Source: Rhodocollybia butyracea
Lineage: Eukaryota; Basidiomycota; Agaricomycetes; Agaricales; Omphalotaceae
NCBI GenBank assembly: GCA_015501585.1
Contig: JADNRY010000390.1
Location: forward strand, 1-56,749
DNA: 56,749 nt
Reading direction: 5' to 3'
This document shows, one piece after another, positions 6,394 through 56,300 of the stretch. A program made the translations under genes and the position numbers. Position 1 is the stretch's first letter. Each line of letters opens with the position of its first letter. The notes below the pieces were generated by a model. The model was given only the letters and a program-made list of their open reading frames with translations, searched no databases and was not told the origin of the DNA.

Positions 6394-9300
6394 TTGACGC
6401 CACCATCCCAGACACCATTGTTGATGTCACAACAACCCAGCTCATCGAAACCATCCACACGAGCTTCAGCCACAACTAAGCCAGTTGCCGCCAACAACCC
6501 AGAGCTTCCTTGTGCCCTAAGACCACATCTTTGGATTCCAACAAAATACCAAGATTGTTACAACAGCTTACAGACTGGAAAATACGAATTTTGTAACCGG
6601 AAAATCTGTCCAAACAGATAGGACATACCCAGTCCTACAGAAGACATACCAGAAATAACATCTGGAATAGCACACAGAATTGAAAAATCCCAGGAGAAAG
6701 CGGCAGTACCCAAACCAGCGGCACCAACATCACCTCCACAGCAGCCAGCCCCGAAAATATCAAGGGCATCATCACAAGCATCACAGGCCTCTCAATCACA
6801 ACCAACACAGCCAAAGCCGCAGCCACCACCGCCGCCCCCACCAGCTCCATCACCTGTACCATCAGATCACGATACTCCTTTGATCCCAAAATCAGACTTA
6901 CCTCACAGCTCACCACCATCTGACGGAGGCGATCCAGGATCATCAGACAAAGAAGAATCAGATAGCTACTCATCTGATGACGAGATGTCCAAAGCACTGA
7001 AAGCATTTGACAAGGTCACCACCCTTAAACCGGATGGATCGAACTGGGACACGTGGAAAAGTCGAGTAGAATTAGCTGCAAAGTCCATAAATTATGGCAA
7101 GTACCTCACATGGAACCCCCATGAAGCAACAGACACACGAGAAGCCGGAAATACAGGGATAAATCATCTGATACAGATTTGCTAAATGCTTTAATTGGCA
7201 GATTATCGGATGGCATTTTTCGAAGGTATAGAAATTATACCAACACTTGTGATGTGTGGACAAATTTAATCGCTGATTTTGACTCCAAAAATGCGCTCAC
7301 GGAATCACATCTGCAGAGACAGCTTCACACCATGCGTTGCTATGAACCATCTAGGGTTAACGAACACCTAGACACTATGTTGGAAATCCGAGACAGTCTT
7401 GAAACCCGCGGCATCGAATTTAGCGATGAAATGTTCAACAACACCATCATATCCTCTATCCCCAACCAATTCAGACCCACCATAAACGCACTTGTTGTAG
7501 TCACATCTCGAACCGACAAGAAACTGGCAACACAGGAATTGATTGCCACCATTCGTGCAGAAGCACAGGGACACGTACGTAGTGCTAGTCATCACAACAA
7601 GGGGAAGAAGGAATCGGCTAACTATGCGGGAAATTCCCGAGGTCGAGGATTTTCTCAGAGGGGATTTTCTAGGGGCCAAGGAAACTCGAAACCAAACGGA
7701 CCTAACAGGTCTACTTCCGCATGTTTTAATTGTGGAGGGAAAGGACATTTTGCGAGCACATGTCCATCGCCTAAACGGCCACAGGCTAATCAAGCCAAAG
7801 AGAGTAGGGAAACTCACGAGCCGAAAGAGGGGAAGAAATCAGATGGAAATTGGAGATCTAGGCCAAAGGGGAAGGAAACCGCATCTTCATCACAGATTGA
7901 AGAAGTCCCAGAATCATCTTGGGCAGCCATTGAGTTGTCATCGGACACCAGCTTCGTCTTTCCTCCCGCCAAATCCTACACCGAGCTTGGAAACTCGACG
8001 GCATCTTTCCAGATGTCCCCAAATACAGCAGAAACATATCTCACATTTGATTTCAATGATATTGCTGATGAACACGAAACAGCAATGATGGGAGCACATA
8101 GCCGAGGGGCTATACTATTTGATTCCGGATGTTCGAGCCACATGACTCCTATGGAGGACAGCCTCCAAGATCTAAAGTCTATTCCGACTAAAGTCATTCA
8201 AGCAGCCAATGCCGGAACTTTTAATTCTAGCATGGCAGGTACGCTTCATTTGGATTTTCCAATTGATAACCACGGCAATACTCGAACCGTCCCACTCCAT
8301 AATGCCCTCCTATGCCCCAACATTCCCAACACTCTTATTTCCTTGGGAAAACTCGATGATGATGGATACAATATCCACATTGGGAATGGTTTACTCACCA
8401 TGACTGACCCCAACAACAGGATCGTTGCACGTATTCCGAAGATCCATGGACTCTACCAGATTCCCATGGAGGAATATGCTTATGTTGCCAAAGATCGACT
8501 GGTATCACTCTATGACGCCCACTGCATCTTAGGCCATCAGAACTATGCTTATATTAAGCACTTATTCGCACACAACCAGATCAATGGGATGAGATTGGAT
8601 AAATCTCACATGGACGAGCCGGAATGCCGTACATGCTTGCTAGCTAAGGCAGCAAGATTTCCGATTGCCAAATTACGGTCTTCTCCACGAGCGGAGAATT
8701 ACGGAGATGTTTTTCACATGGACGTCTGGGGACCCGCATCAGTTCAGACTATCAACCGTTGCACTTATGCCCTCACCATAGTCGACGAGGCGACTCTATG
8801 GTTAGAGGAACCATTGCTGAAAAGCAAGGATGAAGCATTCACCCAGTACGTCATTATTCAAACCAATCTCCAGACTCAATATGGCATCACTGTTAAAATT
8901 CTTCACTCTGATTGAGGGGGAGAGTTTCTTAGCCGAGAATTTAACCAGTACCTGGAACGACTTGGCACCCAGCGGAGATTAACGGTGCATGACACTCCGG
9001 AACATAACGGCATAGCGGAACGCACTCATCGGACTCTACTGAATGCAGTACGAAGTCTAATCATTTCATCAGGACTACCTAAATGGCTATGGGGATTTAT
9101 GATGAAGTACGTGGTTTATATTTGGAACAGGACACCAAAGAAGGGAATAAATATGGCGACACCATATGAAAAAACGGTTCAATCAAAAACCCGACATTTC
9201 TAACTTTCAAATATTCGGGAGCATAGTGTATGTAAAGAAGGAGAAAGAGCCAGGAAAATTCGAACCACAGGCACAAGAAGGAAGATGGATAGGTATAGAC

Positions 9301-11199
9301 ACGGAATCTAACGGATATTTTATCTATTGGCCACAGCGACGAACAGTTACCACGGAACGGAACGTAACAATTTCCAACAGGCAGATCCAACTCATTGAGG
9401 AGGAGGATGGAAATTTGGAAAATTTGGAAACATCAGTCACTGAGTCGGAACAGCCTATTATTCCTGTACCTGACGAAATTGCAGAGCCCATCCCGCCGGA
9501 ACAACTTACCGGAAAACGTGTCAGGCGACCCACTCAGAAAATCAGGGATATCATTGAAGGATCAGCAGAGGGTAACACAGAACTCCGATACCTTACAGCA
9601 TCGCTTGCACAAGTCACATCTGAAATCGAATCAGATCCTTTATCAGTTGCAGAAGCTATGCGCCGACCTGACTGGCCAAAATGGCAAGAAGCCATGAACG
9701 AGGAGATATCCAGACTCAACCAGCGTGAAACTTACGATATAGTCACGGCACCATCGGATGCAAACATTCTCACATCCAAATGGGTTTATCGGACCAAGAA
9801 AGATGAACAAGGACGGCTTACTAGTCACAGAGCCAGACTTGTGGTGCGAGGATTTAATCAAATCCCAGATGTTGATTATTTTCCAGATGAAACTTTCGCA
9901 TCAGTTGCCAAACTCGCATCAGCCAGAACTATTCTCAGCATCGCAGCTGAACACAGCTGGATCATTCATCAGATGGATGTCAAATCGGCATATCTCTATG
10001 GCAAACTTGATGACAGCGAAAAGATCTACATGAAGGCACCAACCGGCATTAATCTAGGTGTAAAACCCGGACAAGTACTTCGACTCAAACTTGCCTTGTA
10101 CGGACTTAAACAAGCAGGTCGAAGATGGTATTTGCGATTCAGAGAAATCATGACGAAGCTAGGCTTCAAACGGTCAGATTTTGATCATGCCGTATTCTAT
10201 CGCACCAACCCGTTCACAATCATTTTCATCCATGTGGATGATATGACATTGGTTACCAAAACTCTGGAAATTATGGCACAGCTGAAGAAATCTATCAGCG
10301 CGATTATCGAGGTCACAGATCAGGGCGAAATTCATTGGCTACTTGGAATCGAGATTCAGAGATCACTTCACAGCAGATCTATCCGTTTATCACAGCGATC
10401 ATACATTGATGCTATTCTTAGCCGCTACGGATTTTCTGACATAAAGCCACTCTCCATTCCTTTCGACCCCCATATTCATCTCACCAAAGACCAGATGCCA
10501 CAGACTGTGGAAGATATCGCCGCCATGCGGGATAAGCCTTACCGAGAAGCACTTGGTGCTCTCCAATATCTTTCCATTGCCACACGACCCGACATCACCT
10601 ATACGGTTGCCATTCTTGCCCGATTCTCACAGAATCCAGGCATCGCTCATTGGAACGGACTTAGGCGTGTATACGCTTATCTGAAATATACCCGGGATTA
10701 TTGGCTAACTTCAGGAGGAGTGCAGAAACATCCTGTCGAGGGATTTACGGACGCCGATGGAATGTCCCAAGAGGACAGACATGCCATATCAGGATACGTT
10801 TTTATGCTTAATGGCGGAGCAGTATCATGGTCATCAAAGCGACAGGACACCATCTCTCTATCCACTACAGAAGCAGAGTACGTTGCTCTCACGCATGCAG
10901 CCAAGGAAGCAATTTGGCTTCGAAACCTCATCTCCGAGTTGTTCACTCCAATCGCCGGACCTATCACACTTCACTCGGACAACCAATCAGCCATTGCTTT
11001 AGCGAAAGATGACAGGTTTCATGCACGGACCAAACACATCGACATACGGTATCATTTCATTCGGTATGCTATTGAAGAAGGTAACATTCGACTTACTTAC
11101 TGTCCAACCGAGGACATGACGGCAGACATTTTCACCAAGGCTTTGACTTCAGCAAAAGCCAAACACTTCGCATCGTCTATGGGACTTGCAAAGGTTTGA
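6394..11199 (+). pseudogene. Copia Gag-Pol polyprotein, broken
   Basis: Reading order: a proline-rich Gag (from about 6,394); zinc knuckle CFNCGGKGHFASTC (about 7,720); aspartic protease LFDSGCSSHM (about 8,110); the pre-integrase His/Cys region and integrase FHMDVWGP (about 8,720); reverse transcriptase with FIHVDDMTLV (about 10,230); and RNase H ending at 11,199. Four lesions are seen: a TAG at 6619-6621, a frameshift near 7,160, a TGA at 8914-8916 just before GGEF of the integrase (CGA to TGA), and a one-base gain in an A run near 9,171. The RT-RNase H part (9,166-11,199) is one long open frame. HVDD in place of YVDD occurs in fungal copia elements and is not itself a defect. The copy is non-autonomous. 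Confidence 0.93.
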
Positions 11200-23398: not shown

Positions 23399-23510
23399 AC
23401 TACGGGGGAAAGAAATTTGTCGCCATGGCTAGGTATCGATTGTCTGTCACCAAACCAAAAGGGCTAGCTGGAAAGGCAGTTGTAGTGGACGGCATCGGAC
23501 GATCACTTAG

Positions 23511-23570
23511 GCGAAGCGAGTCGCCACAAAGTTTAGCTAAGCGTTGCATAAGCGATAACAGTTATCTTTT
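23511..23570 (+). repeat. Left TIR of the MULE
   Basis: Begins GCGAAGCGAGTCGCCACAAA and continues GTTTAGCTAAGCGTTGCATA. The first 41 bp match the inverted right end with about seven mismatches and no gaps; after that small indels are needed, but GTTATCTTTT and GCGCTTATT still align. Confidence 0.85.
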
Positions 23571-23867
23571 GCGCGCTTATTTCTTTCCGTTTCCGTTCGG
23601 GGCGGGAAGTCGTTGCGTCGCGTGAATTGCTCGATCGGGTTTGTGCGCCCTCCCCTCTTTAACCGCAATGCCATTGATTGACAGCAAGCTTCTAGGGTAT
23701 CACAAAATAAAATCCTGTCAGCCATTGTGAAACCTGAAAGGCCCGATACCGGCGAAGAGAATGCCTAGAAAGCTTTTATCTAGGTGATTGGGGCACTATT
23801 TTGCCCCATTCTTTTCTTTCTCTTTCCCTCTCACTACTCTTGATCGTCTCCGTCGCTTTCAGAACCC

Positions 23868-25148
23868 ATGGCTCGCGTTGATCCTTTTATCAGCGCCTTT
23901 GACGCGAATGGCAACCCCGTCGACTTTCCTTAGTATGTACTCTCTATTTTCCCCGTCATCTATCAGTTTTTCGACGCGTTTTTGATCTTTCTAGTCCAAA
24001 ATCTATTGATGGCCTCCCCGCAACTCCTGAAGAAGTTGTCAAAATGCAAGAATCGGGGGAACTCAACATATTTTGCAGGCATCAATTACGCGTCAATGCC
24101 TGGTGTGTCCCGCTGAACAGCGAAACCAAGTATAAAGGGTCCTGCTTCTTTCGCTGCGACAATCAACTGAATCACCGCTGTGGCCTTTATAGTAAGTTTC
24201 ATTCGTTCTTTTTGTAGCAATTTTGATAGCCGTCTAGTTAAAATCGACGACCTATATGCCCCCTTGCTATCTGAACACCTGGCGGACCCGCAATCTGGTC
24301 CTTATCCTTCTCCGCCTGCTTCGCGCAAACGCCCCTCCGTCAATACTCCGACAGAATCGAGCCCTACCAAACGGCGTAAAAGATCCTTGACCTTGGCCAA
24401 CTCTCCACCTCCACCAACCCCTAGCACCCCCAGCAAACTTCAAACAGACATTCACGATGGCGCATACTTTACAAAGCCCCCCTGCGAGCTCAACGGTCCT
24501 TTGCTACCCGATGCCAGTGATGACGGTAAGCAAACATTGACTACTTAACATGCTTTACTTACTTTCCATGTAGACATAGTTTCTTTCTTCACCGACTTGA
24601 AGGACGCTACGATAGGTTTAAAGGGCGTAGTTATATACGACGAATCAAGTAAGTTTTTTTCTCCTCACCTCGCGATATCTTACGAGCGCATACTTATAGA
24701 GACCTCTGCCGGGATATTCACAAAACTCACGGCTGTTGACATCGCGATTCTCATTCAGCAACTTCGTGACCGACTGTTCCCTGGAACAAAAGCTGGTAAG
24801 TATTTCAGATACTGGACGGTTTGGTATCATACCGATCAAATCAAAGAGCTCTTCCGCTTGATTCAGGATATCCCTGGCGCTGGAATTGGGCCCAACAACG
24901 AAATGATAATGGGACCAACGTCGTTCCTTGCAACCGGTGAATTCTTTGACTTGCTTTATGACCGCATCTAATGTGGCCCCAGGTGACACCGCTGACGATC
25001 CCATCGACTTGGATGGTAAGTGTTTTATTGTACTTCCCGAAGGTATCCTAATACGTTGTTTCTAGAGGTGGAAGTATGCGCCGACTGCCGGCAAGAAGTC
25101 GACAGCTCTTTTCACCAAGAAGTCTGCCTTGGTATGCCATCGGCATGA
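23868..25148 (+). CDS. Cys/His zinc-finger protein, MULE cargo (GRF-like)
   Basis: Proposed exons are 23868-23932, 23995-24191, 24238-24525, 24574-24648, 24700-24795, 24983-25015 and 25066-25148, giving 278 aa from MARVDPFISAFDANGNPVDF. Residues about 38-80 carry a Cys-rich module with CRHQLRVNAWC then GSCFFRCDNQLNHRCGLY, resembling GRF-type zinc fingers. A Ser/Pro/Lys-rich linker with a likely nuclear signal (PTKRRKRS) follows. The C-terminus is a CX2CX8HX3C finger (CADCRQEVDSSFHQEVC), like UBZ/CCHC fingers. If the intron after exon 5 is retained, the frame continues to a TAA at 24971-24973 with a plausible alternative C-terminus (FLATGEFFDLLYDRI). The gene starts about 360 bp inside the left TIR, faces inward and converges on the oxygenase gene. 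A nucleic-acid or ubiquitin-binding role is inferred. Confidence 0.7.
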
Positions 25149-25403
25149 ATGTAAGTTGTCTTATCATGTCGTTACCAAGCTAACGTTTTATTTCCAAAGG
25201 TTTAAGCGTGTGCCCACTGTTTCGAACACATTTCCTTACTTACCTGCTTATACTGAACGAACACTGCTTTATTGTACATTGATACAAGTTTCCAGTTACT
25301 TACAGAATGATCCAATAACTCTACTTAATCGCTTACTCTTGCTCCATCGTACGAACCAAAGAAATATGTATAGCTAGAATTCAAGTTAAATAAATACTGA
25401 CGT

Positions 25404-27104
25404 TTAATCAATTTTACAAAGTAGTTCATCTACAGTTGAATAAAGTTCTAATCGTCGAGATACAGCGGTAGATTTGTCCCTCATCATCTGGCGATAACGA
25501 GTGGGGTCAGATTTCTCCAGTTTTTCCTCTGTCAAGCAACCGTTCTCCACCCAACGGAATATTGCTCCGGCGGTGTATTGAGTGAACGATGTTCGAATGT
25601 CTCCGTCTGCAACTGGGGTGTTGGAATGGGTGATGACAGCGGAGGGAATCAGGATAGTTGAGGCGTGAGGAAAATCGATTACCAGCTTGAGCTCCCAGAG
25701 AATAAGTTGGGCACTGCGCGTGGGGTCAAACTTGCCTAGAGCTGTAATTGCGCACCAACCGAAGGGCCAATTCTGAAAATCGCGATGTTTGAACGTCCAT
25801 ACGCTACCGCCAAAGTTGAACGCTGCAGCACCGAAAACTCCACCTGGGAAGTTGTTTTGAAGACCTGGCATCTTCTCCCACATGGTGTTTGTCGTCCGTT
25901 CGTACACCTCATAGACCCTCGGAGCCCAAAGAGAAAATGCCGCTATTAAAAATCAACGTATGAAAGATTGAAAGTAAAAATACCTTACCGTTCTGATACA
26001 TTGCCATCCTGCGGACGGACTTGCTGCCCACAAGGCGTTCCAAAACGTCTTTCATATGCTTCGGATCAAGCTGGACGGGATGAGAGTTCCCCATACCCAT
26101 ACTGACGCCGCAGTTGAATGCTGGGAACCAGCCCCGCGCACCAGCCCCTTCAGATGAAGTTGCTCCCAGGCCGGCCCCTTCACCCTCTCGCATCATCTCC
26201 TCAAAAGCATCATCGAGTTCAGCTGCGTATCCTGAACCCGGTTGACCTGCGAGAACTCCGATAATGCGACCAACGCCGTCAATGAGGGGGAAAGGGGTAC
26301 TAGAGGTCTTCCGTGTTAGAATTTTAAGATGAAGCATTGCATTTGAACTTACCTGCCATCCCATTTGATATGTCGAAAGCCGAGGGAAAGAAGATTGGCC
26401 ACAGTGTACGGCCTACGGATATCTGGAGTAGACCCTCGTTCTTTCTTCGTACCTCGCTTTCCAGTATGGGCCCCCCGCGCTGCGTCGAAATTTGACGCGT
26501 TAATCTCTACTTCAATGGAAGTTCCAGGAGAGAGAACCTCGGCAAGGGTTCGCTTCAAGGGCCTGGAATCTGGAGCTTCCTCCTCTGCCTTCCGTTTCCG
26601 AGCTTCTCGGCGTTTGGAATTTCGTTGGGACTGAACGTAGGGGGCGGGCGTTGAGGCGGAAAGGGATGGAGAGGATTTTAAGCGTGTGAGGGGTTGGAGG
26701 AACGTAGCGACTTTGGAAACCAGCGAAGTTGGTGGTGATTCTACAGGGAGGGGATTGGTATGAGCCGTCACCGAATCTGCAAAGGGGAGCTCCGCCTGAA
26801 GTCCAGCATTAGCTTGAGCTTTCTTATTAGCTGACTGACGGCGACGTTTATCGCGCCGCCTGGCGTTGTCTCTCGTTTGAATTTGCTCCCCCTCGTCTAT
26901 TCCTAATTCATCCCCCTCGTCAATTCCCAAATCGCAGTAGACGGTTACTTGAGGAGCATCGCCAATAGAAGCTCGTGTTAGCGTCAAAAAATCAAACCCA
27001 GGAGGTGCAAACCATGGCCGTACACGCTGCAGAGCCAGCGTTAATACCTGCAACTCTGAGAATTTTTGCAGTTTGCTTACCGCGTTATTTAAGAAATAGG
27101 TCAT
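25404..27104 (-). CDS. TET/JBP-family 2-oxoglutarate/Fe(II) dioxygenase
   Basis: Three exons (27104-26353, 26299-25989, 25942-25404) sum to 1,602 nt, or 533 aa. Introns are 53 and 46 nt. The N-terminal ~190 residues are acidic then strongly basic (RRRDKRRRQ, KRREARKRK), probably nuclear targeting and DNA contact. The catalytic core spans about residues 270-480. It shows VWTFKHRDFQNWPFGWC with the Fe(II) ligands His407 and Asp409, then PSAVITHSN with the distal ligand His460, and RTSFTQY with Arg471, the likely 2-oxoglutarate contact. This matches the fungal TET/JBP family, which oxidises 5-methylcytosine. The usual fungal context is KDZ transposons; here the gene sits in tandem behind a MULE transposase inside the same TIRs. 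An upstream in-frame TTG at 27113 is not needed, since ATG at 27104 gives a full protein. Confidence 0.87.
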
Positions 27105-27781
27105 AGGATTCAATTAAACGATGCTAAGATAGAGATACCTCGTCAGCCTGTAGATCTTGATTAAAATAGAAGGGGAATAGAAAGAAAATGGGAGGAAAAT
27201 GGGCCGGAAGCCCCCAAGCTCAATTTATAGCCCAGCGTGCGTAGTTAGGTCCGATCGGGTCCGAACCAGTAGTCCTACGGCGACAAAAGGCTTCTAATAG
27301 AGTTCGAGTAGACTCCTCGACGCGTTCAAACACGTTGAATGTTCCTCAGCCACCCAAAGTGGATCCAGAAGCAAGCTTCTGATTCACGGCTCTAGGAATT
27401 TGGGAAGCGTTCAAACGCTCTGAAAGAAGAAAAGATAAGGAAAATTTAGAGCAATAGACGTACCGTAAAGTATTTTCAAGCCAACGCGGCCTCGGAATCC
27501 AACGTAGTAGTTAAAGGAAGAGAGTAAACAGAAATTAACGCCTTGTTACGCGCACACGTGACGGGCGCCAAAGGCTGTTGTAACTCGCTGCCGTTGTCTT
27601 TGTTTCCTCCGACTAGCTATTACTTATTTACTTATAGAGCTCTACAACTAGTACAGATAGTGCTTTGAGCACTGTGCTCCCGTTTTCTCCGCAGTTTTCC
27701 ATCTCTTCATCCCCCGCGCATGCCAACGTTCCAGCGGCTTCCAAAATGTATACCTAATAAATAACTAAATGCGAAATGCCT
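27105..27781. other. Intergenic between oxygenase and transposase genes
   Basis: About 680 bp without a supported gene. It holds the oxygenase promoter and the transposase 3' flank. CpGs are frequent, for example in GACGCGTTCAAACACG near 27,318-27,333, unlike the decayed repeats further right. Confidence 0.5.
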
Positions 27782-30700
27782 TTACAAAGTGCCATGCGAG
27801 GCTTTGCGTATTTGCTTTCTCTCTGGAGAGGGGGCCCGCAGAGTAGGGACATCCGACTTTTGTCGCTGTCGCTTGAGGCTCCTGGTAGGCTGAGGGGCAA
27901 AAACTGTTGAGTCGGAAACAGTACGGCGAAAGTTTCGGCTTGGGCCTTGCTTGGGAGAACCGGTAAGTGAGGGAGGAACGGATGGGGAAGGTGAATTACG
28001 GGCTCGAATTTGAGAAAGTCGAGCGGATAGATTATCGATAACATCATGGAGATCTACAAGTTCGCGCGAAGGAGAGCTCAAGATTGTCACATCTTCAAGC
28101 AAGCTCTCTAGAGCATAGAGATTAGGGAGAAGTGCTACTGCCTGCTGCTGAAGCCGACTGCCGATTTGAGTCTGAATTGCAGCGAGCTGGGATGAAAACA
28201 AGCTTGTTGGCGCCTCTGTATTTCTTACAGGGTTCTCGCCTTCACTTGAACCAGAAACTGACCCTGTTCCAGAAGCCCCGCTGTTGTCTTCTTCAGCTGC
28301 ACCTCCAAGAGTTGTTCGATCGCCTCCCAATGCCTGCACCATTGTCCAGTCCGTAGCCATGGAGGAACACGGGTCCACGTCGGAAGGAGGAAGGGGAGAA
28401 AGAACGCTGGATGAGATATTGGGAGGGGAAGGAGTGACGGCGGCAATTTGTTGGGCTTCTACAAGGCTCAAAGGATAATGGAAAGCAGTTTCAAGTCCCC
28501 TGGTGACCCAACTATCAACGAGAACACGGAATGCCCGCAGATGCTTGCACGCAGCTCCCTTGTCGTAAAAATCCAGACAAGAACATGAGGCTTTACCTGA
28601 ACGGTGAATACTTAGTTGATATTCCGTTAGTCCTTCAGAAGCCAGGCAAGAGGTTATAAATGTATCCCTATCCAAACCGAAGGTGGGAGGGCGTAGTCGA
28701 CCTGCATGTAGAAGCTGAGTGGCATGGAGATCTCGAGTCTCATCTTGAGGCCACCAGCATAGGCTTCGTTGAACACGACAAAGCTCGAGCTTTGCAGTAC
28801 GTGCCTTCTTTTGAAGCTCAAGGATGTCTGCACCTCCAGCTGCCTCGCGGAACCGTGAAGTAAGCCAGAGGCGGTACTCCCTTTCGTTTGTACGACGCAT
28901 ATAGGCTTGAGGAAGGATTTTGGTAATCAGGAGCATGATGAGTGTGTCGAACCGTAAACGGTGTCCGGAATGGAGGTAGCGCTGGATGTATTTGCGTTTT
29001 AAAATCCCATTGAATGATTCCAGATGATTTGTTGTGGGTATAACTCCCTGTACCGTAATTCCTATGGCAGCAGCAGCCTTTACTCGCCCCCATTCTGACC
29101 AACTTTTCCAGAGATCAATTGACATCCAATTGACGTCAAGATACTTAATGTGCTCGAGAGCTGCCTCGGCGGCGTGCTTTGCCTCGGTATTCTGTACCAG
29201 GTTTGTGAAGTACGAGCGGTTATGAGAAATGAGATCTTTGGCAACAGAGTATTCCACGGTGGCGATTAATCTGTGTATATATCATTAGAATGTTTCGAAA
29301 AAAATTTAATCAAACTTACTGGACTTCGAGAGTCTTTAAGTTAGTGCGAACTTGGTTTTTCCAGAACTCGGGAGCTTTACACCTCGAAGCTTTTTTCAGA
29401 TTGTTTGTCCAGCACTGACGCAAGTGAAATTTACAGAGCAAAAGAATTATCTGAGGCCAAACGCAAATAAGAGCTCCGCGTTCCTTGGTATCCGTATCGG
29501 TGATAGTAGAGCAGGGTTCAAATGCTCCGAACTTCACAACCAAGTGCTGTTTCCACTTACTGAGTAACTTGGTGAGGATAGCCGTGTTATATGACGCGGA
29601 AGTTTGTCTGTGTCCTGTAGCAGCAGAGAAGAGAAAAAACGCAATGGGAACTCCCTTTCTATCCTCATCGACAGCCAAAGCAATGAATAGAAGCAGACGG
29701 GAGCTGCAAACTCCGAAGGTCCCATCGAGTATCATTTGAGAACTATGAGCGTACTTGTGTGCGGCTGCATCCATCTCTGGCGTGGAGATACAGATTTCGA
29801 ATCGGTCTTCAGCTTCAGCCCGAGCGCTATAATGAAATACAGCCTCTGCGATTTGAGGATTGAACTCTGGGCTTCCGGGATCCAACCAATTGTTGACGTT
29901 GTATTGGGGTTGAATCCGCGCATCCACTCCGAGCTCCTTACTAGCTTTCCGATACAGCGTGGCATGGTCGGAGTGGAGGAAGAGATACCGTACGTTTGTA
30001 GAGTCTGGATTGTATGTACCCATGTCTCGATACAATTTCTCGTTAATCATAGTGCGATTCTTTTCCTGAATCGCTGTAATACTAACGCAAAATCGGCCAT
30101 AGTAATGAAAATAGAGGAGAAATATACCTTGCGCCATTCTGGAGCTGTTTGAGTGCTTCTTCATAGACATGCTCATGCAAAGGAATTTGAGGTGTGCGCT
30201 GAATTGCCGACTTGGTGCAAGCTTCGTTGTGGACAAATACTCCGCAAATACTAGTTACGGCTCCGTCTTGAATACGTTCCACTATTTCAACGTGAGCTAA
30301 ACACCCTGTGAACTGGTAGGGATTTCTTCTTTTTGTGTTGACTTGAATGCTCTTTTTATGTTCGTCTCGCTGTTGGCGGATGCTTTTATGATACCCACAG
30401 GAGCTGCTTTCACAGCTTAACTCGTCAACCTTGAATGATTCGTAAGGACAACTTGCCATTGAAACAGTGTTCGTTTTTTCTTGCTCTTGTTTCCCCATGT
30501 TGTTGACCATTGAACCGTCCAACGGCTCTCAAGTGCAGTCCGAGATACCTGATCTAACCCAAGCTCAGCTAACTTTGTTAAAGCGGCTTCTTGGTTCGGT
30601 GTATTATCGAGTTTAAAACTGAGGGCGATTTGTCGGGAGGACTTGTAGATCTCGTTAACCGAGTTGCGCTGGGATTCAGCGAGGGAGAGGTATCCTATCT

Positions 30701-31300
30701 TAACCTAAATAGCGCAAGCGTGACATTACTCCGTTCATCTAAATAGATTTGCTTACCTCTCGTTGTTGGATTTGAGCCGTTGAAGAAAGGGGCGCAGCTG
30801 ATTTTCGAAGTTCATCCATGCTTAAAGTAGGTATAGGATGTGCGTTTAACTGCCAAGTGATATACCTTCATAAAATTACATTACGAAGTTAGCGTTGTAC
30901 TTACCTGTTTGCGTTTGCCTTTTGAGTGCAACGGAACTAATGGAGGAAGTGACGCCACCGCTGTACGGAGTTCATCAACGCTTAAAGTTGGAGGAGGAGC
31001 AGGATTGCTTGATCCCTGCTAGAAATGTTAATAAGATAACTGACTGCGTAAGTGTCTTACGCTGGAAGGGACGTTATCAAGTACAATCCATTCGGATTGT
31101 TCTGTGGATGAAGGCGGGGATTGCAACTGTACAGTATCAGTTATAGAGCTTAATACTTGCCTCCGATTAGTATTACTGACCTTTGGCAACCCGTTTTCAT
31201 CAAATATAATCCACTGGTCGGATGGGAAGGTTTGCACAAGCGGCCAGGAAGGCCCCTTCAGCGCGCATGAATAACTTTCTATCAGTATCTTCGGAGAAGT
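27782..31300 (-). CDS. MULE transposase with SWIM zinc finger
   Basis: Minus-strand exons: about 31300-31061 (5' limit unresolved), 31015-30905, 30849-30757, 30704-30457, 30403-30128, 30081-29320 and 29270-27782. Exons 2-7 keep frame for 993 codons, so the protein is about 1,070 aa. The N-terminal zinc-binding part includes FQCSCGYHKSIR and FTGCLAHVEI. The DDE core follows: Asp in ILDGTFGVC, Asp in TITDTDTKERGAL, KFHLRQCW, and Glu in TTNHLESFNG. A SWIM finger, CSCLDFYDKGAACKHL, lies near 28,540-28,600. The tail is Ser/Pro rich with basic patches. Exon 4 ends at a GC donor (TG|GCAAGT), which recreates the conserved Cys. The first exon lacks an ATG in frame, so another short 5' exon is likely. 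It cuts and joins the element's TIRs. No disabling lesion is seen in the assigned exons. Confidence 0.9.
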
Positions 31301-31804
31301 TCAAACCTGATATGAATTCATGTTGCGGAGCTCTAGCCAACGTTTCACGAAGATACAACGCCTAAGTTCGTCGCTTTGGAAAACAGACTGGAGGGTTTGC
31401 AACAGTATAACGGCTCAGTCGACGTCAAAGTACTGTATCATTGGGCAAAATTAAAAGAATAGTACTGCTTTGCTTAAAGTTACGGTCCGTATCTGGAGTT
31501 TTGGCTTTTTCATCGCCTTTGTGAGATACCGGAGCTTTGAGCCTAGGTATTCCGACGTCAAATACGAAGGTTGCTACGCCGGGGCAGTCGGGACAAGTAC
31601 GATGGGACCTGGATAAAAAGGAAGGCGAGTAAGTCACAATCGATTAATACCAACTGAATTGAGAGATCTACGGTTTTGTACTTTGTGTAGTCTTAAATCG
31701 AAGCATATTGCTCAAGGTTTGATTGAAACGCTAGCCTATTTGAGCTAGGATCCCGACGCAGGAGCGGAACGGCAAAAAAGACGCTCAAATCTAATAAGCG
31801 CCAA

Positions 31805-31864
31805 AAAGATAACAGCGATTCCGTTATGCAATGCTTATCTAAACTTTGTGGGGACTGCATTTGC
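31805..31864 (-). repeat. Right TIR of the MULE
   Basis: Read on the minus strand from 31864 it starts GCAAATGCAGTCCCCACAAA and continues GTTTAGATAAGCATTGCATA. It is followed outward by ATCACTTAG (31865-31873), the second copy of the 9-bp target duplication. Confidence 0.85.
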
Positions 31865-31873
31865 ATCACTTAG

Positions 31874-42516: not shown

Positions 42517-43040
42517 GTTATTCCTTTCAGATATCAAGCTATATCCTGGATTCAAAGAATTCTATGCCTGGTGCAAGGCTAATGATATTCCTGTTATCAT
42601 GGTTTTGAGGTTTGTGTTTTGGTTCTGTGTGGCCATGTGTTACATGAGGTATATTGATTGAACACATGCAGTGGAATGACGCCTACCTACCATCCGCATT
42701 GTGCTCACTAACCTTGTTGGAGAAGACTCTGCAAACAAGATTGAGATTATATTGAATGACGTTGATATCAACCCCAATGGGACTTGGGAGATCAAGTTTA
42801 GATATCCTACCAGGTAAGTACAAACACATCCAAAACACGGATTTGGCCGAGGTTTCTTTATTTGCTTTTACTTATGTATACAAGCTCTGCGTTCTCATTT
42901 TTCAGTGGGTTTGGGCACAACAAGTCCCAAGCAATCTTACCCTATCGCAATTTGGTGAATCCTCTGACCTTGTTTTTCTTCGGAGATGATGTATCTGGTT
43001 TGTCCTTTCTCTTATACATACTCAATAATTAACCTTACTG

Positions 43041-45724
43041 AGCCTAAAACACAGATATCATAAATGAATAAGTGGTAGGGTCAGTGCGATCAATTATACC
43101 AAGAGACTGACTATGGCCACTCATCATAAAATAAATAATTGTTACCCATTGTCGTGCTCCCTTTGGGCCTTTTGCCCGCGCTATGTGCGGGCGCCCAGGG
43201 AAAATTAGGCTTCAAAAGCAATATTTTGGGGCCGTTGATGAATGTTGAATGCATATCCTGGCAAATCCTTGCTTTCCTCTAAAATAGGATCCACTGGCAG
43301 AGCAGGAATGATTATTATAATGCTATTAGAGTTATGACTGACAGTACTCACTGACGAGTACTGACCAGTTATTATGCTGGTTTTGAAGACTTATCGTTAG
43401 CACATTATCAGAGCCCAATGATTTTTACTATTAAGAGTACTATTATAACTACGACTGACAGTAATCAAACAAAGCCTTTTCCAAAATTCCAAGAAAAAAA
43501 TTGTATTTTCCCAAAAAGCAAGCATTGTCAATACGATAACATTAACGGAAAGTAGACTAAATATGATAGGGACCAAGGAGAGAGCAAGTGACGGCGACAA
43601 AACATTATAAGAACATATGCAATACTATACAATATGAACAAGTGACCAAGATTAGGCATACAACAAGAGTCGCATATAAAAAAACGGAGCGAGAGCAACT
43701 AGTCCTTTTTGTGTCGCTTAGCACTACCTTTATCCGCCCCAATTTCATTTTCTGAAGGCGATATTTGGGTATTTACGTGTAGGTATGCGAAAGGTGCTAT
43801 AAAACAACCTAACAAAAACACTACCGCACCTAACCAGACTATCAATATGTAAGGGAGCGAGGGCGGGTTGTCAGAGATTCCCCGAGGGAAAGCTTTGTAA
43901 TATCGGATGTACGCGCGCGACTGCTCCAGGTTCAAGACTGTAGCGCTAACGTGGGTAACTAAGCTTAGACAACTCTTAGAACTAAGTCGAGAGAAGCCTA
44001 GTTGGGGTGTACAAGTGTACGAGGGAACCAGGTGTGTATGTCCAAATCAATTAACCAAAACCAAAACCAATACAACGAAACTAAGATTCTCCTAGGCAAA
44101 CTCTGGCTCTAGCTAGAATAGTAATCTCAAGGTTTGTCAACAACCCTAGGCAAACTCTGGCACTAGCTGCTGTGACGCCGTAAAGTCCTCGACCAAACTC
44201 TGGGCCAAGCTACGATATTGTGAGTGAACTTAATCACTAGGAACTCGTACCACAATCTTAGTGGCTCGTCTAACTTCGTGAAGAAGTCAACTAAGGAACC
44301 CTCACTCTGGAGCCGAATAATCCCTTACTAGAAGCCGTCCCCTCTAAGGAAGCAACTAGATTTGAGTTGATCTGGAGTTCGAGAGAACTCTACACACTTA
44401 AATTTGATCAAGATATAAATGGGCTTTGCAAAGCGCGTGAAGTTTATTACTTTCTTAAGATAACCAAGTCAGGAGGCGTCACGCTACTGATCCCGTGGGG
44501 ACGTTCTACAGAGCACTGGTCTTAGCAGTCAAGTCGAGGGCAAGAAACTTGTCTTATTGAATAAATATATCTGGCTTATATACTGAGTAGAGAGAGTTTA
44601 ATACGAAAAATAGATGAAACAGATACAGAGAGAGACGGAAAGAGAGTGGAACAGAGGAATCTGGCTCGGAAAGGAAACTTCAGCCTATATATGGTACACA
44701 CGATAAAGAAATAGTCCATTCTTGGGTATATATCAGAGGTAAAATATGATTTCGTGAGGATTAACATAGTTTTAGAGTGTTTTGATCTGAGCGAGGTTTC
44801 TCCGATTACTCCACAATTCTCCGGGGTCAGGAGTACCTTTACGCTTCATGATCACTCGCCGCCCGGTTTCCCTTGGGTGAGTTTCATTCTATTCCTCGGA
44901 TAGTTCTGTCCATCCTGAGTGTGATTAACATTCTCTCGAGAAGGCCTGTTATCTAGCTTTCCAACGACACCACTTATGATAATCTCGAGCAACTGCGCTG
45001 AGTATGTACAAGTGATTCCCAATAGTCGGCTTTAACGGATAAGACCTTCCGTGTATGATTTCTAAGATCAAATGTTTCGATTTGCCAAGGCTATCCCGGC
45101 GCGTAGCTTTCCGTAGGACCGCTAAGCATGTTTCTACCGTCCTCATGGTTGCGACCGGTGCTGCGAATAGATCTTTATGGTTTCCTCGGGATCGTTCTGG
45201 TCCATTGTTACGGACTGTAAAGTCCACATCTTAACATAGCTCGTTGGGGGTCTTAGTGCGAGGGATGCCTTCCCTCGAGTAACGCGTTGGCTTAGTACTT
45301 ATCCCGCTTCGAGATGTCCTGTAGTTTAGAGAGTATGCACTCTTGGGTATAACTAAATTGACGATCTAGCGTTACATCTCCGGGCAGCCCAGGTATCCTC
45401 GCTAGCTTGGCTCCAGGCTACGCTTGTGGGCGTACCTTCACGGCTCGCTGAGTATTATTGTTAAGTTCTTTGCCTCGGCAACAGCTATCACGCTCGGGCT
45501 CCGTATAACTCTCTTATTGCATTGTATAACATGTACAAAGTGTCAAAATGTATGGTTACACGCCTTAGGCCGATTTTAGGCCTAATAGCGAGGTTTGCTT
45601 ACAGCCTGTACTCTCCTTTCGATTCCTCTCCTTGATTGTGATGGGTTCTTGGCTTGGGGCAGTGTTTCAGATTCGCTTTGGGCAGCCTACCACCATCGAT
45701 GGATCCGGATCCGGACTGCATATT
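43041..45724. other. Unassigned, repeat-derived sequence
   Basis: No recognisable gene family. Visible structure: GACTGACAGTA occurs twice (about 43,335 and 43,453), and CCTAGGCAAACTCTGGC(T/A)CTAGCT occurs at about 44,092 and 44,146. The first 50 bp may still be flank of the copied phosphatase. The text resembles LTR or other non-coding transposon sequence, but no paired end was found in the window. Confidence 0.4.
43699..43935 (-). CDS. Possible small membrane protein (78 aa)
   Basis: An ATG-initiated frame, MNLEQSRAYIRYYKAFPRGI, contains one strong hydrophobic segment (LPYILIVWLGAVVFLLGCFI, about residues 28-50) and a basic tail, SAKRHKKD. No homologue family is recognised. The surrounding sequence is repeat-like, so it may be chance or part of a transposon. 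Confidence 0.25.
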   Translation of the reverse strand: MNLEQSRAYIRYYKAFPRGISDNPPSLPYILIVWLGAVVFLLGCFIAPFAYLHVNTQISPSENEIGADKGSAKRHKKD

Positions 45725-48173: not shown

Positions 48174-51100
48174 TCATGGTCTCATGCACTCTCTGATGAA
48201 TGAGTTCACATCTTCAGGAACACGTCCCTCCACCTCAAGAATTGTTTCCAGTTCTAGGCTCTCCTGAGTGACATCCATGAATGAGGTGAAATCAAGAGGA
48301 TCATCATGACGAATGGCAAACTTTAACATCTGCAAAGCTTCAAACATCAGCGGCGAAAGTTTATTTCGCCTGACAGTCATGGTCTCATTTGAAGATGAAA
48401 AAACCCGTTCACAAGGCACAGCAGAGCCCTGCAATGGCAGAATATCCATAGCAAGCTTGAACAAAGTGGGATAGATGGTTTGTTTCTCCTGCAATATTTG
48501 TAAGCTTTCAAATTGGAATAAACCCAAAACTTCATTCACCTGCCAGTAAATAAGTGTTGTAGTTGCAAATGTGGGATCTGCCAGATATGCATTGAGCTCC
48601 TCTTCAACGTTTTGGTCCTGCGGACCTCGGTGTCGACGACGGCTAAACATTGCTTCAGCTTCTGAAAGTTGTGCTTGTGGTGCCTGGGTTTGTTCCAAGT
48701 TTGTGGTATAAGCTTGAGCACGATACCCTTGCATCTACAAATTTTATATGAGCATTCAGAAACTGATACACATGATATGTGGTACCCTACTTTCTCAATC
48801 ATCATGTCTTTTGCCCAGCAATGACCATCCATATCATTTTGCTGATGATAGTAGTCAAATTTCATATCTGGATTAATTACTGAGTGTAAATTGTCAATGA
48901 ATCGACCTGTTTACATCAATATATTTAAATATGTAAGCTCACCCATTGCCAGGGCATATGCTGGTACTCTAGCCATGCGCTTATGATAATCCTTGATTTT
49001 GCTGAGACCTGCTTGGATTGATTGTCTCATTTCGGGTAGTTGCCTCTGGAGCTCTTCCCATAGCTCAATTATCCGTGCAAATGAGGGTAAAAAATCGCAT
49101 AGAGTTGGGGTTTTCTCCTTCGAGAGTAGCTGTTGAAAGTTATGCGGTATCTACATATTATAGTTAGTTAGTGCTTGAATCAGTCACAATAAGTACATAC
49201 CTCAAGTACCCTGGACAGCTGTTTGAGAGCTAACCATTCTTGCTCATTGAGTACATACTGTGACAGATCTCCATATGCTGGATCCTTGAGAAATGAATCC
49301 ATGACCTGTGTACAATCATCAATGTTCATAATCAATTATTTCACAGAGATAAGAAAAAAGTAGGAAGTAATCACCTCACGCATCTCAAGTCCACGTTTCA
49401 ACATCAACTGGGTTGATGACCAACGTACATTCACATCCCGGAGGAGTTGGAGGGGGCGACTGAACTTTGCAGCCACCAGCTGCTGGAATGCATCACGTCA
49501 AACACCAGACTTCCGAATCTGATATAATAGGTGAAATAATGACAACTAAGAATTTTTAGAATTACCTCGCGTATACCTGTTCGCAATTTGGTAAGAGCAC
49601 CTGGTAATCTTTGAGCTATTCCCCGAGCACTCTGAGTGCTGTCTTCTGCAACACGTATAACAGCCTGGCACCCAAGATGAACAATATGCGGAAAACATCT
49701 ACAACATTGTTTTTAGAAGGAAGTCAATATTATTAAGATCATTTACCGTAGTCGATCCTCCTCAGCTGTCCATTCCAGCTCAGGCCATATATCTGCTAGC
49801 TCTAGTTCAAACTCTGTTGCCATAGTGTCATTTACCGATGCATTGTCCATTGTGATTCCTCCAACCTACAGTGTAATACAATTAGGCAATATTATTATTG
49901 CTTTGAAATGAAAAACCTCACCTTTCCCAAAATCCCTAAACGTTCACAAATGAATACAAGCCCATGTGAGCAGTGCCGACCAGTGTGTCTTCCAGGAATG
50001 TGAAGAAATCCAACGAGAGCACACTCAAAGTGGAGTCTAAGCTGGCCATCAGGTCCCTTCTTGGCTTCAATCCAGTGTGCAGTAACACCCATCACTCCTC
50101 TCAAAAGCATGTCAGACCACATGTCTTCCGTTAATGCAATCTTTCCAACTGCATTCTGTAAATTCAGCCCACGTTAGTACATACAGTAGTGACAAGTAGT
50201 ATAAAGCAAAGGAATATACCTTTAACCGAGTACGCAAGTCATCAAGATATTGATGCCATTTCTGCATGATGCGCTGACGAAGAGTCTCCCGAGAGGGAAT
50301 GTCATTATCATTGAGCTCTTCCCGTAACAAAAGAATGAGGCGGCGAAACTGCTTATTATCAATGACATTGATACTCTAGTATAGCCGTGTTAATAATAGG
50401 TGACTAAATGATGAGATAAAAACTAACCTGATCATCAGCTACAATAAAATCTACAAGTGCATCAATGAATGCCGCCATACTGAATGACAAACGCTCAGCC
50501 TGTAAGGCTGTTTCATCAACTGGAAGATTCTGGCGACGACACCATTCATTATAGTCTGCAAGGTAGCGCCCACGGACTTTGATCTTAAATTGTAGGCAAG
50601 CTTGGAACCAAATATCACCATGCTTCTTGAGAAAGTGTCGCCGAATATTGTCGATGCTTGTTGCAAAGCTGTATGATTGTACTGGGTGATTTGGGTTTGC
50701 TCCATGTAGGGCCCTAGACAAGATATATTGTAAACAAGGGCAGGACCGGAATAGATTAAAACAAATAACAAACTCGCAAAAAGAGCAGAAGCTCAGTTTA
50801 TTATCATGATCTTTCCTCACAAACTTAGCTACATCATTTGCTTTTCCGCCTTCATGTCGTTTTGTACCAACGCGCCGGGCAGAGGGAGGGCAAACGCATG
50901 TGCTCGAAAAGTAGGTGTGGCAAGTCGGTTTGGAGTCCGTACCTGATCCCGGTGTCGACGTGGAGTTTGTGCATTGACTGGCTGATGTTGGTGTCGACGT
51001 CGACTTGGTGTCTCTTCAAGGTCCTCGAATTCAGAATTTGCATCATCATCAATGAAACCACCCCCATCACCAAGATCACTGGAGCTGAGCTGTGGTAGTC

Positions 51101-53352: not shown

Positions 53353-56300
53353 CTATGTCTGTTATTCACTGAATAGCTGGCTGTTGCGCAATATCTTGTT
53401 ATTCACTGAATATCTGGCTGTTCACTGTATATCTGGGTATTCACTGAATAGCTAGCTGTTCATTGCCATCCTCCCCATATCTGGGTTATTCACCGAATAT
53501 CTGGTTATTCACTGAATAGCTAACTGTTCATTGCCTTCGGGATTCTCCCCATATCTAGTTATTCACTGAATAGCCAGAGATTCAATGAATAACCAGCTAT
53601 TCAGTGCATAGCGGGCAGTGGCAGTGAAGCGAATATAGCTAGCTATTCAGTGAATAGTTAGCTATTCAGTGAATAGTTAGCTATTCAGTGAATAGTTAGC
53701 TATTCAGTGAATAGTTAGCTATTCACTGTAGCTATTCAGCAAATATCCAGATATTCACTGAATAGCCCAATATTCAATGAATAGCTAGAATAGATTCATT
53801 GAATAACCAGATATGGAGAGGAGAACACTGAATAGCTAGCTATTCATTGAATATCTTGTTATTCACCGAAGAGCTACCTTGGGACTGGGGAGGAGAACAC
53901 TGAATAGCTAGCTATCCACTGAATATCTGAAAAGCCAGCTATTTACTGAATATCTGGTTATTCACTGAATAAATAGCTGTCCGCTGCTGCTATTCAGTAT
54001 TCACTGCCACTGCCTACTGATCCTCCCCATGTCTGGTTATCCACTGAATAGCTGGCTATATCTGGTTATTCACTGAATAGCTGGCTGTTGCGCCATTTCT
54101 TGTTATTCACTGAATATCCAGTGGCTATTCACTGTATATCTGGTTATTCACTGAATAGCTAGCACTGAATAACTAGTATTCACTGAATAGCTAACTGTTC
54201 ATTGCCTTCGGGATTCTCCCCATATCTAGTTTTATTCACTGAATAGCCAGATATTCAATGAATAGCCAGATATTCAATGAATAGCCAGATATTCAATGAA
54301 TAGCCAGATATTCAATGAATAGCCAGATATTCAATGAATAGCCAGATATTCAATGAATAGCCAGATATTCAATGAATAGCCAGATATTCAATGAATAGCC
54401 AGATATTCAATGAATAGCCAGATATTCAATGAATAGCCAGATATTCAATGAATAGCCAGATATTCAATGAATAACCAGCTATTCAGTGCATAGCGGGCAG
54501 TGGCAGTGAAGCGAATAGCTAGCTAGCTATTCAGCGAATAGTTAGCTATTCAGCGAATAGTTAGCTATTCAGTGAATAGTTAGCTATTCACTGTAGCTAT
54601 TCAGCGAATATCCAGATATTCACTGAATAGCCCAATATTCAATGAATAGCTAGAATAGATTCATTGAATAACCAGATATGGAGAGGAGAACACTGAATAG
54701 CTAGCTATTCATTGAATATCTTGTTATTCACCGAAGAGCTACCTTGGGACTGGGGAGGAGAACACTGAATAGCTAGCTATCCACTGAATATCTGAAAAGC
54801 CAGCTATTTACTGAATATCTGGTTATTCACTGAATAAATAGCTGTCCGCTGCTGCTATTCAGTATTCACTGCCACTGCCTACTGATCCTCCCCATGTCTG
54901 GTTATCCACTGAATAGCTGGCTATATCTGGTTATTCACTGAATAGCTGGCTGTTGCGCCATTTCTTGTTATTCACTGAATATCCAGTGGCTATTCACTGT
55001 ATATCTGGTTATTCACTGAATAGCTAGCACTGAATAACTAGTATTCACTGAATAGCTAACTGTTCATTGCCTTCGGGATTCTCCCCATATCTAGTTATTC
55101 ACTGAATAGCCAGATATTCAATGAATAGCCAGATATTCAATGAATAGCCAGATATTCAATGAATAGCCAGATAATTCCAATGAATAGCCAGATATTCAAT
55201 GAATAGCCAGATATTCAATGAATAGCCAGATATTCAATGAATAGCCAGATATTCAATGAATAGCCAGATATTCAATGAATAACCAGCTATTCAGTGCATA
55301 GCGGGCAGTGGCAGTGAAGCGAATAGCTAGCTAGCTATTCAGCGAATAGTTAGGCTATTCAGTGAATAGTTAGCTATTCACTGTAGCTATTCAGCGAATA
55401 TCCAGATATTCCACTGAATAGCCCAATATTCAATGAATAGCTAGAATAGATTTCATTGAATAACCAGATATGGAGAGGAGAACACTGAATAGCTAGCTAT
55501 TCATTGAATATCTTGTTATTCACCGAAGAGCTACCTTGGGACTGGGGAGGAGAACACTGAATAGCTAGCTATCCACTGAATATCTGAAAAGCCAGCTATT
55601 TACTGAATATCTGGTTATTCACTGAATAGCTAGCTGTTCATTGTCAGGACTTGTCCAATATCTGGTTATTCACTGAATAAGTAGCTGTGCACTGCCGCTA
55701 TTCAGTATTCACTGCCACTGCCTACTGATCCTCCCCATGTCTGGTTATCCACTGAATAGCTGGCTAGATCTGGTTATTCACTGAATATCTGGCTATTCAC
55801 TGAATAGCTGACTGTTGTGCCATATCTTGTTATTCACTGAATAGCTAGCTGTTCATTGCCATCCTCCCCATATCTGGGTTATTCACTGAATAGGTTATTC
55901 ACTGAATAACTAGTATTCACTGAATATCTGGTTATTCACTGAATAGCCAGAGATTCAATGAATACCCAGCTATTCAGTGCATAGCGGGCAGTGGCAGTGA
56001 ACAGGTAGTTATTCAGTGAATAGCTAACTATTCAGTGGTCACTGGGACTGCCTCCCCATGTCTGTTATTCACTGAATAGCTGGCTGTTGCGCAATATCTG
56101 GCTATTCACCAAATAGCTAGCTGCCACTGCCTTGGGACTACCAAGATATGGGAGGAGAACACTGAATAGCTAGCTATCCACTGAATATCTGGTTATTCAC
56201 TGAATAGCTAGCTGTTCATTGCCAGGACTTGGGATCCTCCCCATATCTGGTTATTCACTGAATAAATAGCTGTCCGCTGCCGCTATTCAGTATTCACTGC

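What the first reader, a model, noticed from the sequence alone, without database searches (positions are those of the whole stretch)
23502..31873. An intact-looking Mutator-like transposon that carries a TET/JBP DNA-methylcytosine oxygenase
Seen directly: a 9-bp duplication (ATCACTTAG) exactly flanks ~41-bp inverted repeats. Between them lie a MULE transposase (DDE residues plus SWIM finger), a 533-aa TET/JBP dioxygenase with all catalytic residues, and a zinc-finger protein. Established: fungal TET/JBP expansions are associated with KDZ transposons; plant VANDAL MULEs carry VANC anti-silencing proteins. Inference: this MULE carries enzymatic anti-silencing cargo, oxidising 5mC on its own DNA or at its ends to stay active or to transpose.
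Basis: partly seen in the sequence, partly recalled or inferred. Interest (0 to 1): 0.96.

Follow-up and report, generated by a model that had tools for sequence, protein, structure and literature searches.

The report
Mushroom jumping gene carrying TET enzyme
In a butter-cap mushroom genome, a Mutator-type jumping gene (DNA transposon) carries, between its own ends, an open gene for a TET-like enzyme that is predicted to oxidise methylated DNA and would likely help the element escape the host's silencing.

Summary
Window 23511-31864 is an 8354-bp Mutator-like element (MULE) with terminal inverted repeats and a perfect 9-bp target-site duplication. It holds three open gene models: a Cys/His-rich protein, a 533-aa TET-type dioxygenase and a MULE transposase.

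The oxygenase moves with the element. Five elements in this Rhodocollybia butyracea genome have different perfect 9-bp duplications and enclose the oxygenase and Cys/His-rich genes. One is a 99%-identical copy without transposase, with paralogous unoccupied target sites. The predicted structure matches CcTET, NgTET1 and TET2 best. Of 9 loci found with the Cys/His-rich gene, 7 have the oxygenase and 2 its remnants.

In the lineage pair where all three genes were compared, TET changed least. Of 27 transitions separating the two closest copies, 21 are at CpG, as methylation plus deamination would give.

Fungal TET-bearing DNA transposons of ten lineages are already described (Kojima 2025), but no MULE appears in that paper's main text: a new superfamily for a known kind. 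Catalysis, methylation state, expression and an anti-silencing benefit are untested, and CpG decay shows that carrying TET does not fully protect the copies.

The parts
23502..23510 (+). left 9-bp target-site duplication ATCACTTAG
   Evidence: exact pair with 31865-31873
23511..23582 (+). left terminal inverted repeat (about 72 bp; outer 41 bp 34/41 identical to the right end)
23868..25148 (+). Cys/His-rich 'zinc-finger-like' gene, 325-aa model, 6 introns; function unknown
   Evidence: gene model; found in 9 loci of the genome; no Pfam hit
25404..27104 (-). TET/JBP-type 2OG-Fe(II) dioxygenase gene, 533 aa, 2 introns; H407, D409, H460, R471
27782..30819 (-). MULE transposase gene (877-aa model from 30510; the NCBI model P0121 starts at 30819 but drops the DDE exon; true N-terminus unsettled)
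27849..30680 (.). stretch missing from the C1272 copy, which removes the transposase core
31793..31864 (-). right terminal inverted repeat
31865..31873 (+). right 9-bp target-site duplication ATCACTTAG

Best explanation
This is an 8354-bp Mutator-like DNA transposon that carries, beside its MULE transposase and a Cys/His-rich protein gene, a gene whose product has a predicted TET fold and would likely oxidise 5-methylcytosine on the element's own DNA, so relieving host methylation. Shown by sequence: the TSD/TIR boundaries, the open gene models, independent insertions that enclose the oxygenase, paralogous unoccupied sites, conserved catalytic residues and constraint on the protein between lineages. 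Inferred: the transposase cuts and reinserts the unit at its TIRs. The host methylates CpGs in the copies. The TET-like enzyme oxidises 5mC there, which lowers or recodes methylation at the promoters and ends, so that transposase stays expressed or ends stay usable. The third protein might target the enzyme or transposase to the element; that step is a guess. Gene-less 0.5-kb relatives (MITEs) with the same ends probably use the transposase in trans.
For: Boundaries and mobility: five elements with distinct perfect 9-bp TSDs enclose oxygenase and Cys/His-rich gene: C706 (window), C1272, C212, C494 and C877. Three paralogous sites of the C1272 insertion are continuous, with a single copy of the 9-bp target that differs at 1-2 of 9 positions. 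Two MITEs sharing the TIR also have perfect 9-bp TSDs.

Co-travel: the transposase query matched in 6 contigs, 5 with the oxygenase beside it and 1 (C993) cut by the contig start. Of 9 loci with the Cys/His-rich gene, 7 have the oxygenase and 2 its remnants. Neighbouring gene tags link TET and transposase in Marasmius crinis-equi, Paramarasmius palmivorus and Marasmius sp. AFHP31 (two loci); a shared contig length suggests it in Lentinula novae-zelandiae. Across the 6 linked pairs, window included, distances correlate, r 0.73, exact p 0.022.

Selection: pN between window and C212 is 0.155 for TET, 0.277 for transposase and 0.266 for the Cys/His-rich gene. TET pN/pS is 0.20-0.23 against five other loci. 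H, D, H and R are kept in 5 of 5 transposase-bearing elements.

Substrate: 21 of 27 transitions between the two near-identical copies are at CpG; p 3e-15 if all sites are alike, 9e-9 if only C and G sites count. PF00145 methyltransferase matches over the cut-off lie on 4 contigs.
Against: No methylome, expression or enzyme data. In two other mushrooms only a few TET/JBP genes showed weak expression (PMC8889193 passage). The CpG decay means that TET does not keep copies free of methylation; 5 of the 21 losses are in the window copy, whose transposase and TET are open. Other copies are damaged: C1272 has R471Q at the likely 2OG-binding arginine, the C877 TET an in-frame stop at residue 82, and the Cys/His-rich gene a stop in C212 and C1017. 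Within the young C212/C494/C877 group TET pN/pS is 0.57 to 1.5, as in decaying or relaxed copies. In other species not every listed transposase relative has a listed TET neighbour (Marasmius tenuissimus PM082 0 of 5, AAF712 0 of 1, Athelia 0 of 4, P. palmivorus 1 of 2; only 120 of 362 TET and 120 of 163 transposase hits were listed). On the TET tree the six linked rows are scattered in a 40-row branch: 5 changes against a shuffled mean of 5.9, 41 of 500 shuffles as low, so their grouping is weak. CpG o/e near 1 may show only youth; the C1272 flanks also have 0.94. PF12851 is not hit by the window protein.
Confidence: 0.56

Rival explanations
1. The enzyme acts in trans and genome-wide: it raises oxidised cytosine everywhere and the element profits no more than its neighbours; it is kept because any TET-bearing transposon survives better, not because it marks its own DNA.
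For: At least 70 TET loci in this genome, 5 near this MULE lineage's transposase and 14 near a KDZ match, so enzyme genes are plentiful. Kojima 2025 suggests non-target-specific action in Agaricomycotina (read). Gene-less MITEs with the same ends would profit.
Against: Such a gene would be redundant among 70 loci, yet between window and C212 TET is the most conserved of the three genes.
Confidence: 0.21
2. The enzyme serves the transposition reaction: oxidised or unmethylated cytosine at the CpG-bearing ends controls transposase binding or excision timing, apart from gene silencing.
For: The left TIR holds CpGs, one of which (element position 3) was lost in C1272. Transposase and TET are neighbours in the five loci that have both.
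Against: No binding or excision data. The outer 41 bp of the right TIR hold no CpG.
Confidence: 0.1
3. The oxygenase is passenger cargo, captured by chance and not needed by the element.
For: MULEs are known to take up extra reading frames (introduction of PMC6446971, passage seen). Young copies show pN/pS from 0.57 to above 1, and some carry stops.
Against: It persists, in fixed order, in deeply diverged elements with near-saturated synonymous sites and pN/pS about 0.2, and beside related transposases in other genera.
Confidence: 0.08
4. It is a DNA-modifying 2OG oxygenase with another substrate or product (6mA, thymine, 5mC conjugation as in CMD1, or RNA).
For: CcTET also acts on 6mA and CMD1 conjugates 5mC (Kojima 2025, section 3.4). 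Identity to the solved TETs in the list is only 9-13%.
Against: The best fold matches are DNA 5mC enzymes. CpG-biased decay points to 5mC as the mark on these copies.
Confidence: 0.1

Closest known systems
TET+ fungal DNA transposons (Kyakuja, Dileera, Zisupton, hAT7, PHISTA, IS3EU, EnSpm, ESTA, Plavaka, Helitron; Kojima 2025, PMC12730594)
   Same: TET/JBP gene inside a bounded DNA transposon in fungi; same proposed role against methylation-based silencing; other accessory genes also present in some.
   Different: The transposase here is a MULE with 9-bp TSDs. In the main text 'MULE' and 'Mutator' are not found; MuDR appears twice, both in a passage on VANDAL and SET elements. Its supplementary table was not read.
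KDZ transposon-linked TET/JBP expansions (Iyer et al. 2014, PNAS)
   Same: Expanded TET/JBP genes beside transposases in mushrooms.
   Different: Different transposase superfamily. The paper itself is not held; known here from Kojima's account and from recall.
VANDAL MULEs with VANC anti-silencing proteins in Arabidopsis (PMC10398659, abstract seen)
   Same: A MULE that carries an anti-silencing gene (predicted here, shown there); VANDAL TSDs are also listed as 9 bp (table passage in PMC6446971).
   Different: VANCs are sequence-specific DNA-binding proteins, not oxygenases; here the cargo is an enzyme. Homology between VANC and the third protein was not tested.
MuDR/MULE elements with SET genes in Phytophthora (passages of Kojima 2025, and PMC6446971)
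   Same: A MULE with a chromatin-modifying enzyme as cargo.
   Different: Histone, not DNA, modification; other host group.
CcTET of Coprinopsis cinerea (PDB 8jkk, 7w5p, 7vpn)
   Different: 11% identity.

Membership tests
Mutator-like element (MULE) | MULE transposase domain PF10551 | tested here: met
   29.0 bits, cut-off 27.6; relatives P0122 and P0133 31.7 bits
Mutator-like element (MULE) | 8-11 bp target-site duplications (PMC6446971) | tested here: met
   perfect 9 bp in 5 of 5 gene-bearing elements with both ends seen and in 2 of 2 MITEs read; C547's right end not found, C993 and C1017 cut by contig ends
Mutator-like element (MULE) | terminal inverted repeats (usual, some families lack them) | tested here: met
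   34/41 and up to about 72 bp here; 143 bp at 79% in C212
Mutator-like element (MULE) | SWIM zinc finger (common, not universal) | tested here: inconclusive
   13.9 bits, below cut-off 19.6 in the window protein; 26.8 bits in relative P0133
TET/JBP dioxygenase | TET-type double-stranded beta-helix fold | tested here: met
   AlphaFold2 pLDDT 93.9; TET structures top both lists, above FTO/AlkB
TET/JBP dioxygenase | HxD...H iron triad and 2OG arginine | tested here: met
   H407, D409, H460, R471; in alignment A1 of 88 relatives both His invariant, Asp and Arg in 90% or more
TET/JBP dioxygenase | Pfam PF12851 match | tested here: inconclusive
   no hit for the window protein; relatives P0082, P0109, P0110 (38-40% identical) carry the precomputed label but scan at 24.6-28.6 bits, cut-off 34.9
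TET/JBP dioxygenase | oxidation of 5mC | not testable with these tools
   needs enzyme assay
PE-type TET of Kojima 2025 | HxE in place of HxD | tested here: not met
   H407-R-D409
AG-type TET of Kojima 2025 | Gly/Ser at H+5 and Asp at H+11 (CcTET Gly331, Asp337, counted from His326) | tested here: inconclusive
   Asn and Cys here and each in 105 of the 109 relatives in which a motif was found, of 120 looked at; but a KDZ-adjacent TET of the same genome also has Asn and Cys, so this count does not separate the types
TET+ DNA transposon | TET gene between TIRs and TSDs of one unit, in repeated insertions | tested here: met
   five insertions with distinct TSDs
One of Kojima's ten TET+ lineages | transposase of those lineages | tested here: not met
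   the transposase is PF10551 MULE and none of the ten is named MULE
VANDAL MULE | VANC-type accessory protein | not tested
   no VANC sequence was compared

The most novel reading that the evidence does not exclude
A Mutator-superfamily transposon that runs its own DNA-demethylation service: an enzymatic counterpart of VANDAL/VANC anti-silencing, old enough to have diversified in several mushroom genera with the oxygenase as its most conserved gene, and shared with a swarm of gene-less MITEs that use the same ends.
Probability: 0.4. Interest if true: 0.8.

Novelty: new variant of a known kind. Interest (0 to 1): 0.65.

Why it matters
It adds the Mutator superfamily to the transposons known to carry a TET/JBP gene, with boundary evidence (five distinct 9-bp duplications and paralogous unoccupied sites) stronger than gene neighbourhood alone. 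MULEs already include plant VANDALs with VANC anti-silencing proteins and SET-bearing members, so an enzymatic version invites direct comparison of binding-type and oxidation-type escape. The system is testable: two nearly identical copies, one without transposase and with a probably broken TET, sit in one mushroom genome.

Tried and rejected
Sequence search of the Pfam library and of solved structures with the TET protein or its alignment gave no TET match; identity was settled by fold. The structure model of the Cys/His-rich protein family failed (mean pLDDT 39.6), so its 'zinc finger' label stays a pattern. I tried to classify the TET as AG, PE or PU type by residues counted from the text of Kojima 2025 and dropped it: PE is excluded by HxD, but the AG rule as I counted it does not separate a KDZ-adjacent TET of the same genome. 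A search for an unoccupied window site found only diverged partial relatives of the left flank on C574; the right flank had no match in the C574 pieces fetched. The right end of the C547 element was not found in 42701-43500. C222, C611, C954 and C1083 are TET copies cut at one common point without the Cys/His-rich gene; the four end sequences tried gave no hit there. An early dN/dS run let reading frames run into introns; I replaced it with exon cores and quote only that. For the KDZ distances I entered 89 coordinates of 144 matches, leaving out further fragments that I took for the same locus.

Literature: searches showed no paper on a MULE with TET among the rows listed (searches listed only part of their hits; one search used a phrase that cannot match the spelling with a slash); one search found Kojima 2025. 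The library lacks most subscription journals, so absence in print is not shown. Seen: PMC12730594 outline with abstract, passages, sections 3.2 and 3.4 whole and part 1 of 2 of section 4; PMC6446971, PMC8290104 and PMC8889193 passages; PMC10398659 outline with abstract; Iyer 2014 nothing (recalled).

Full report
What is there. The window is contig C706 of a 95.6-Mb genome; its proteins are named as Rhodocollybia butyracea BDP27DRAFT entries. The element runs from 23511 to 31864 and is flanked by a perfect 9-bp duplication. The outer 41 bp of its ends agree at 34 positions, never reached in 100,000 shuffles of one arm. Three genes have open spliced models: a 325-aa Cys/His-rich protein on the + strand, a 533-aa oxygenase and a MULE transposase on the - strand. 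Public gene models at this locus look mis-spliced: P0121 skips the DDE exon and P0241 the Cys-rich segment (compare).

The oxygenase is part of the mobile unit. A second copy (C1272:152582-158102) is 99.3% and 99.9% identical over the two shared parts, has its own perfect 9-bp duplication, keeps the oxygenase and Cys/His-rich genes, and lacks window 27849-30680 with the transposase core. Three paralogous sequences of its target run through the insertion point with a single copy of the 9-bp target, differing at 1-2 of 9 positions; a 21-bp gap lies just upstream in the inserted allele. Three older elements, about 65-70% identical to the window element in the longer aligned stretches, have their own ends and perfect 9-bp duplications: C212:106718-115248, C877:1442-11830 and C494:33573-41772. 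C547 has the genes and one end; its other end was not found. C1017 carries the Cys/His-rich gene and the oxygenase up to its contig end.

Co-travel. The transposase query matched 10 places in 6 contigs: five have the oxygenase beside them and C993 is cut by the contig start. The Cys/His-rich query matched 9 loci: seven have the oxygenase, and C525 and C118, 99% identical to each other, keep only remnants of it. PF10551 matched 10 places: C706, C494, C877 and C547 (C212 was found by protein only), and six other loci (C820, C645, C627, C819, C499, C561) with no listed TET match within 300 kb (81 of 231 TET candidates were scored); so TET looks like a trait of this MULE lineage, not of all MULEs here. 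In other species, neighbouring gene tags join a TET and a transposase relative in Marasmius crinis-equi (1 of 1 listed transposases), Paramarasmius palmivorus (1 of 2) and Marasmius sp. AFHP31 (2 of 3), and a shared contig length suggests it in Lentinula novae-zelandiae (1 locus; the many other listed Lentinula transposases share none). None was seen for M. tenuissimus PM082 (0 of 5; one shares a contig with a TET but is far off by tag), AAF712 (0 of 1) or Athelia (0 of 4). These are read by eye from the 120 listed of 362 TET and of 163 transposase hits; nearly every row shows one contig however many members it has, so links are undercounted. The six linked TETs, window included, all fall in one 40-row branch (SH-aLRT 97, quick tree of 120 rows) but are scattered in it: 5 changes, shuffled mean 5.9, 41 of 500 shuffles as low; the other rows of that branch were not tested for linkage. 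TET and transposase distances over the six pairs correlate (r 0.73, exact p 0.022).

Selection. On exon cores, window against C212: TET pN 0.155, pS 0.694 (447 codons); transposase pN 0.277, pS 0.826 (452 codons, the only pair with enough letters); Cys/His-rich pN 0.266, pS 0.747 (193 codons). TET pN/pS is 0.20-0.23 against C212, C494, C877, C547 and C1017. Within the young group it is high (0.57-1.5), as for copies that decay after insertion. Synonymous sites between lineages are near saturation, so the ratios overstate relaxation and are only a guide.

Methylation traces. CpG observed/expected is 0.99 in the element, 0.97 in C212 and 1.02 in C1272, against 0.24-0.6 in ten of the 28 2-kb stretches of the window and 0.47-0.74 in five loci of truncated or decayed relatives. 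But the C1272 flanks (0.94) and the MITE (0.97) are not depleted either. The two closest copies differ by 27 transitions and 3 transversions; 21 transitions are at CpG, 16 lost in C1272 and 5 in the window copy. This is what cytosine methylation and deamination leave, so the copies have probably been methylated. PF00145 matches over the cut-off lie on 4 contigs. Passages of PMC8889193 report oxidised 5mC in transposable elements of two other Agaricales, and only weak expression of a few of their TET/JBP genes.

Mechanism. I take the unit to be a self-mobilising MULE with an oxidation-type anti-silencing enzyme. Steps shown: insertion with TSD, shared cargo, conserved enzyme, CpG decay. Steps inferred: transposase activity, 5mC oxidation, action on the element, gain in expression or transposition, role of the third protein. 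Short elements with the same ends appear as inverted pairs spanning 533-582 bp in 14 places (from the matches), plus one on C494; the two that I read have perfect 9-bp duplications, so the family probably mobilises MITEs.

Against the known. Kojima 2025 (PMC12730594; parts seen are named under Tried and rejected) shows that TET+ DNA transposons of ten lineages exist in fungi and proposes escape from methylation. Neither MULE nor Mutator occurs in its main text; MuDR occurs twice, in a passage on plant VANDAL and Phytophthora SET elements. A broad MULE survey (PMC6446971) holds no 'TET', 'JBP' or 'dioxygenase' in its main text. So the kind is known and the superfamily is new to it, as far as these texts go.

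Noticed in passing
C1271:703158-703690 (L069), C494:41803-42321 (L073) and the pairs: Gene-less elements of about 0.5 kb share the element's terminal 41-43 bp at about 90-95%; the two read have perfect 9-bp duplications. One starts about 30 bp from the end of the C494 MULE.
   Followed up: partly
L042, L048, L052, L055, L056, L057, L059 (C470, C478, C485, C573, C556): Another repeated unit (86-99% identical over 2-4 kb) carries a TET 51-67% identical to the window's, in several copies beside a 228-aa ORF without Pfam match; its transposon type is unknown.
   Followed up: partly
L043, L049, L051, L054, L058, L060, L064 (C611, C954, C222, C1083): TET copies close to the window's all start at the same point (window 25355), lack the Cys/His-rich gene and share a further 0.7 kb; the three loci measured have CpG o/e 0.47-0.74. 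Perhaps capture by another element or a deletion family.
   Followed up: partly
window 30681-31864 against C1272: None of the 21 CpG transitions between the two copies lies in the right 1.18 kb, though it is 21% of the compared length; local protection, conversion or chance.
   Followed up: no
window 53360-56693: Long arrays of a 19-bp unit (TATTCACTGAATAGC-like); CpG observed/expected 0.24 in 54001-56000.
   Followed up: no
window 6622-11196 and 48177-51015: By eye, copia-like gag/pol ORFs and hAT-like ORF remnants (ORFs); not searched.
   Followed up: no
whole genome G000: At least 70 TET loci: 14 within 8 kb of a KDZ transposase match, 5 within 8 kb of this MULE lineage's transposase, the other 51 with neither, so further TET-bearing elements are likely.
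   Followed up: partly
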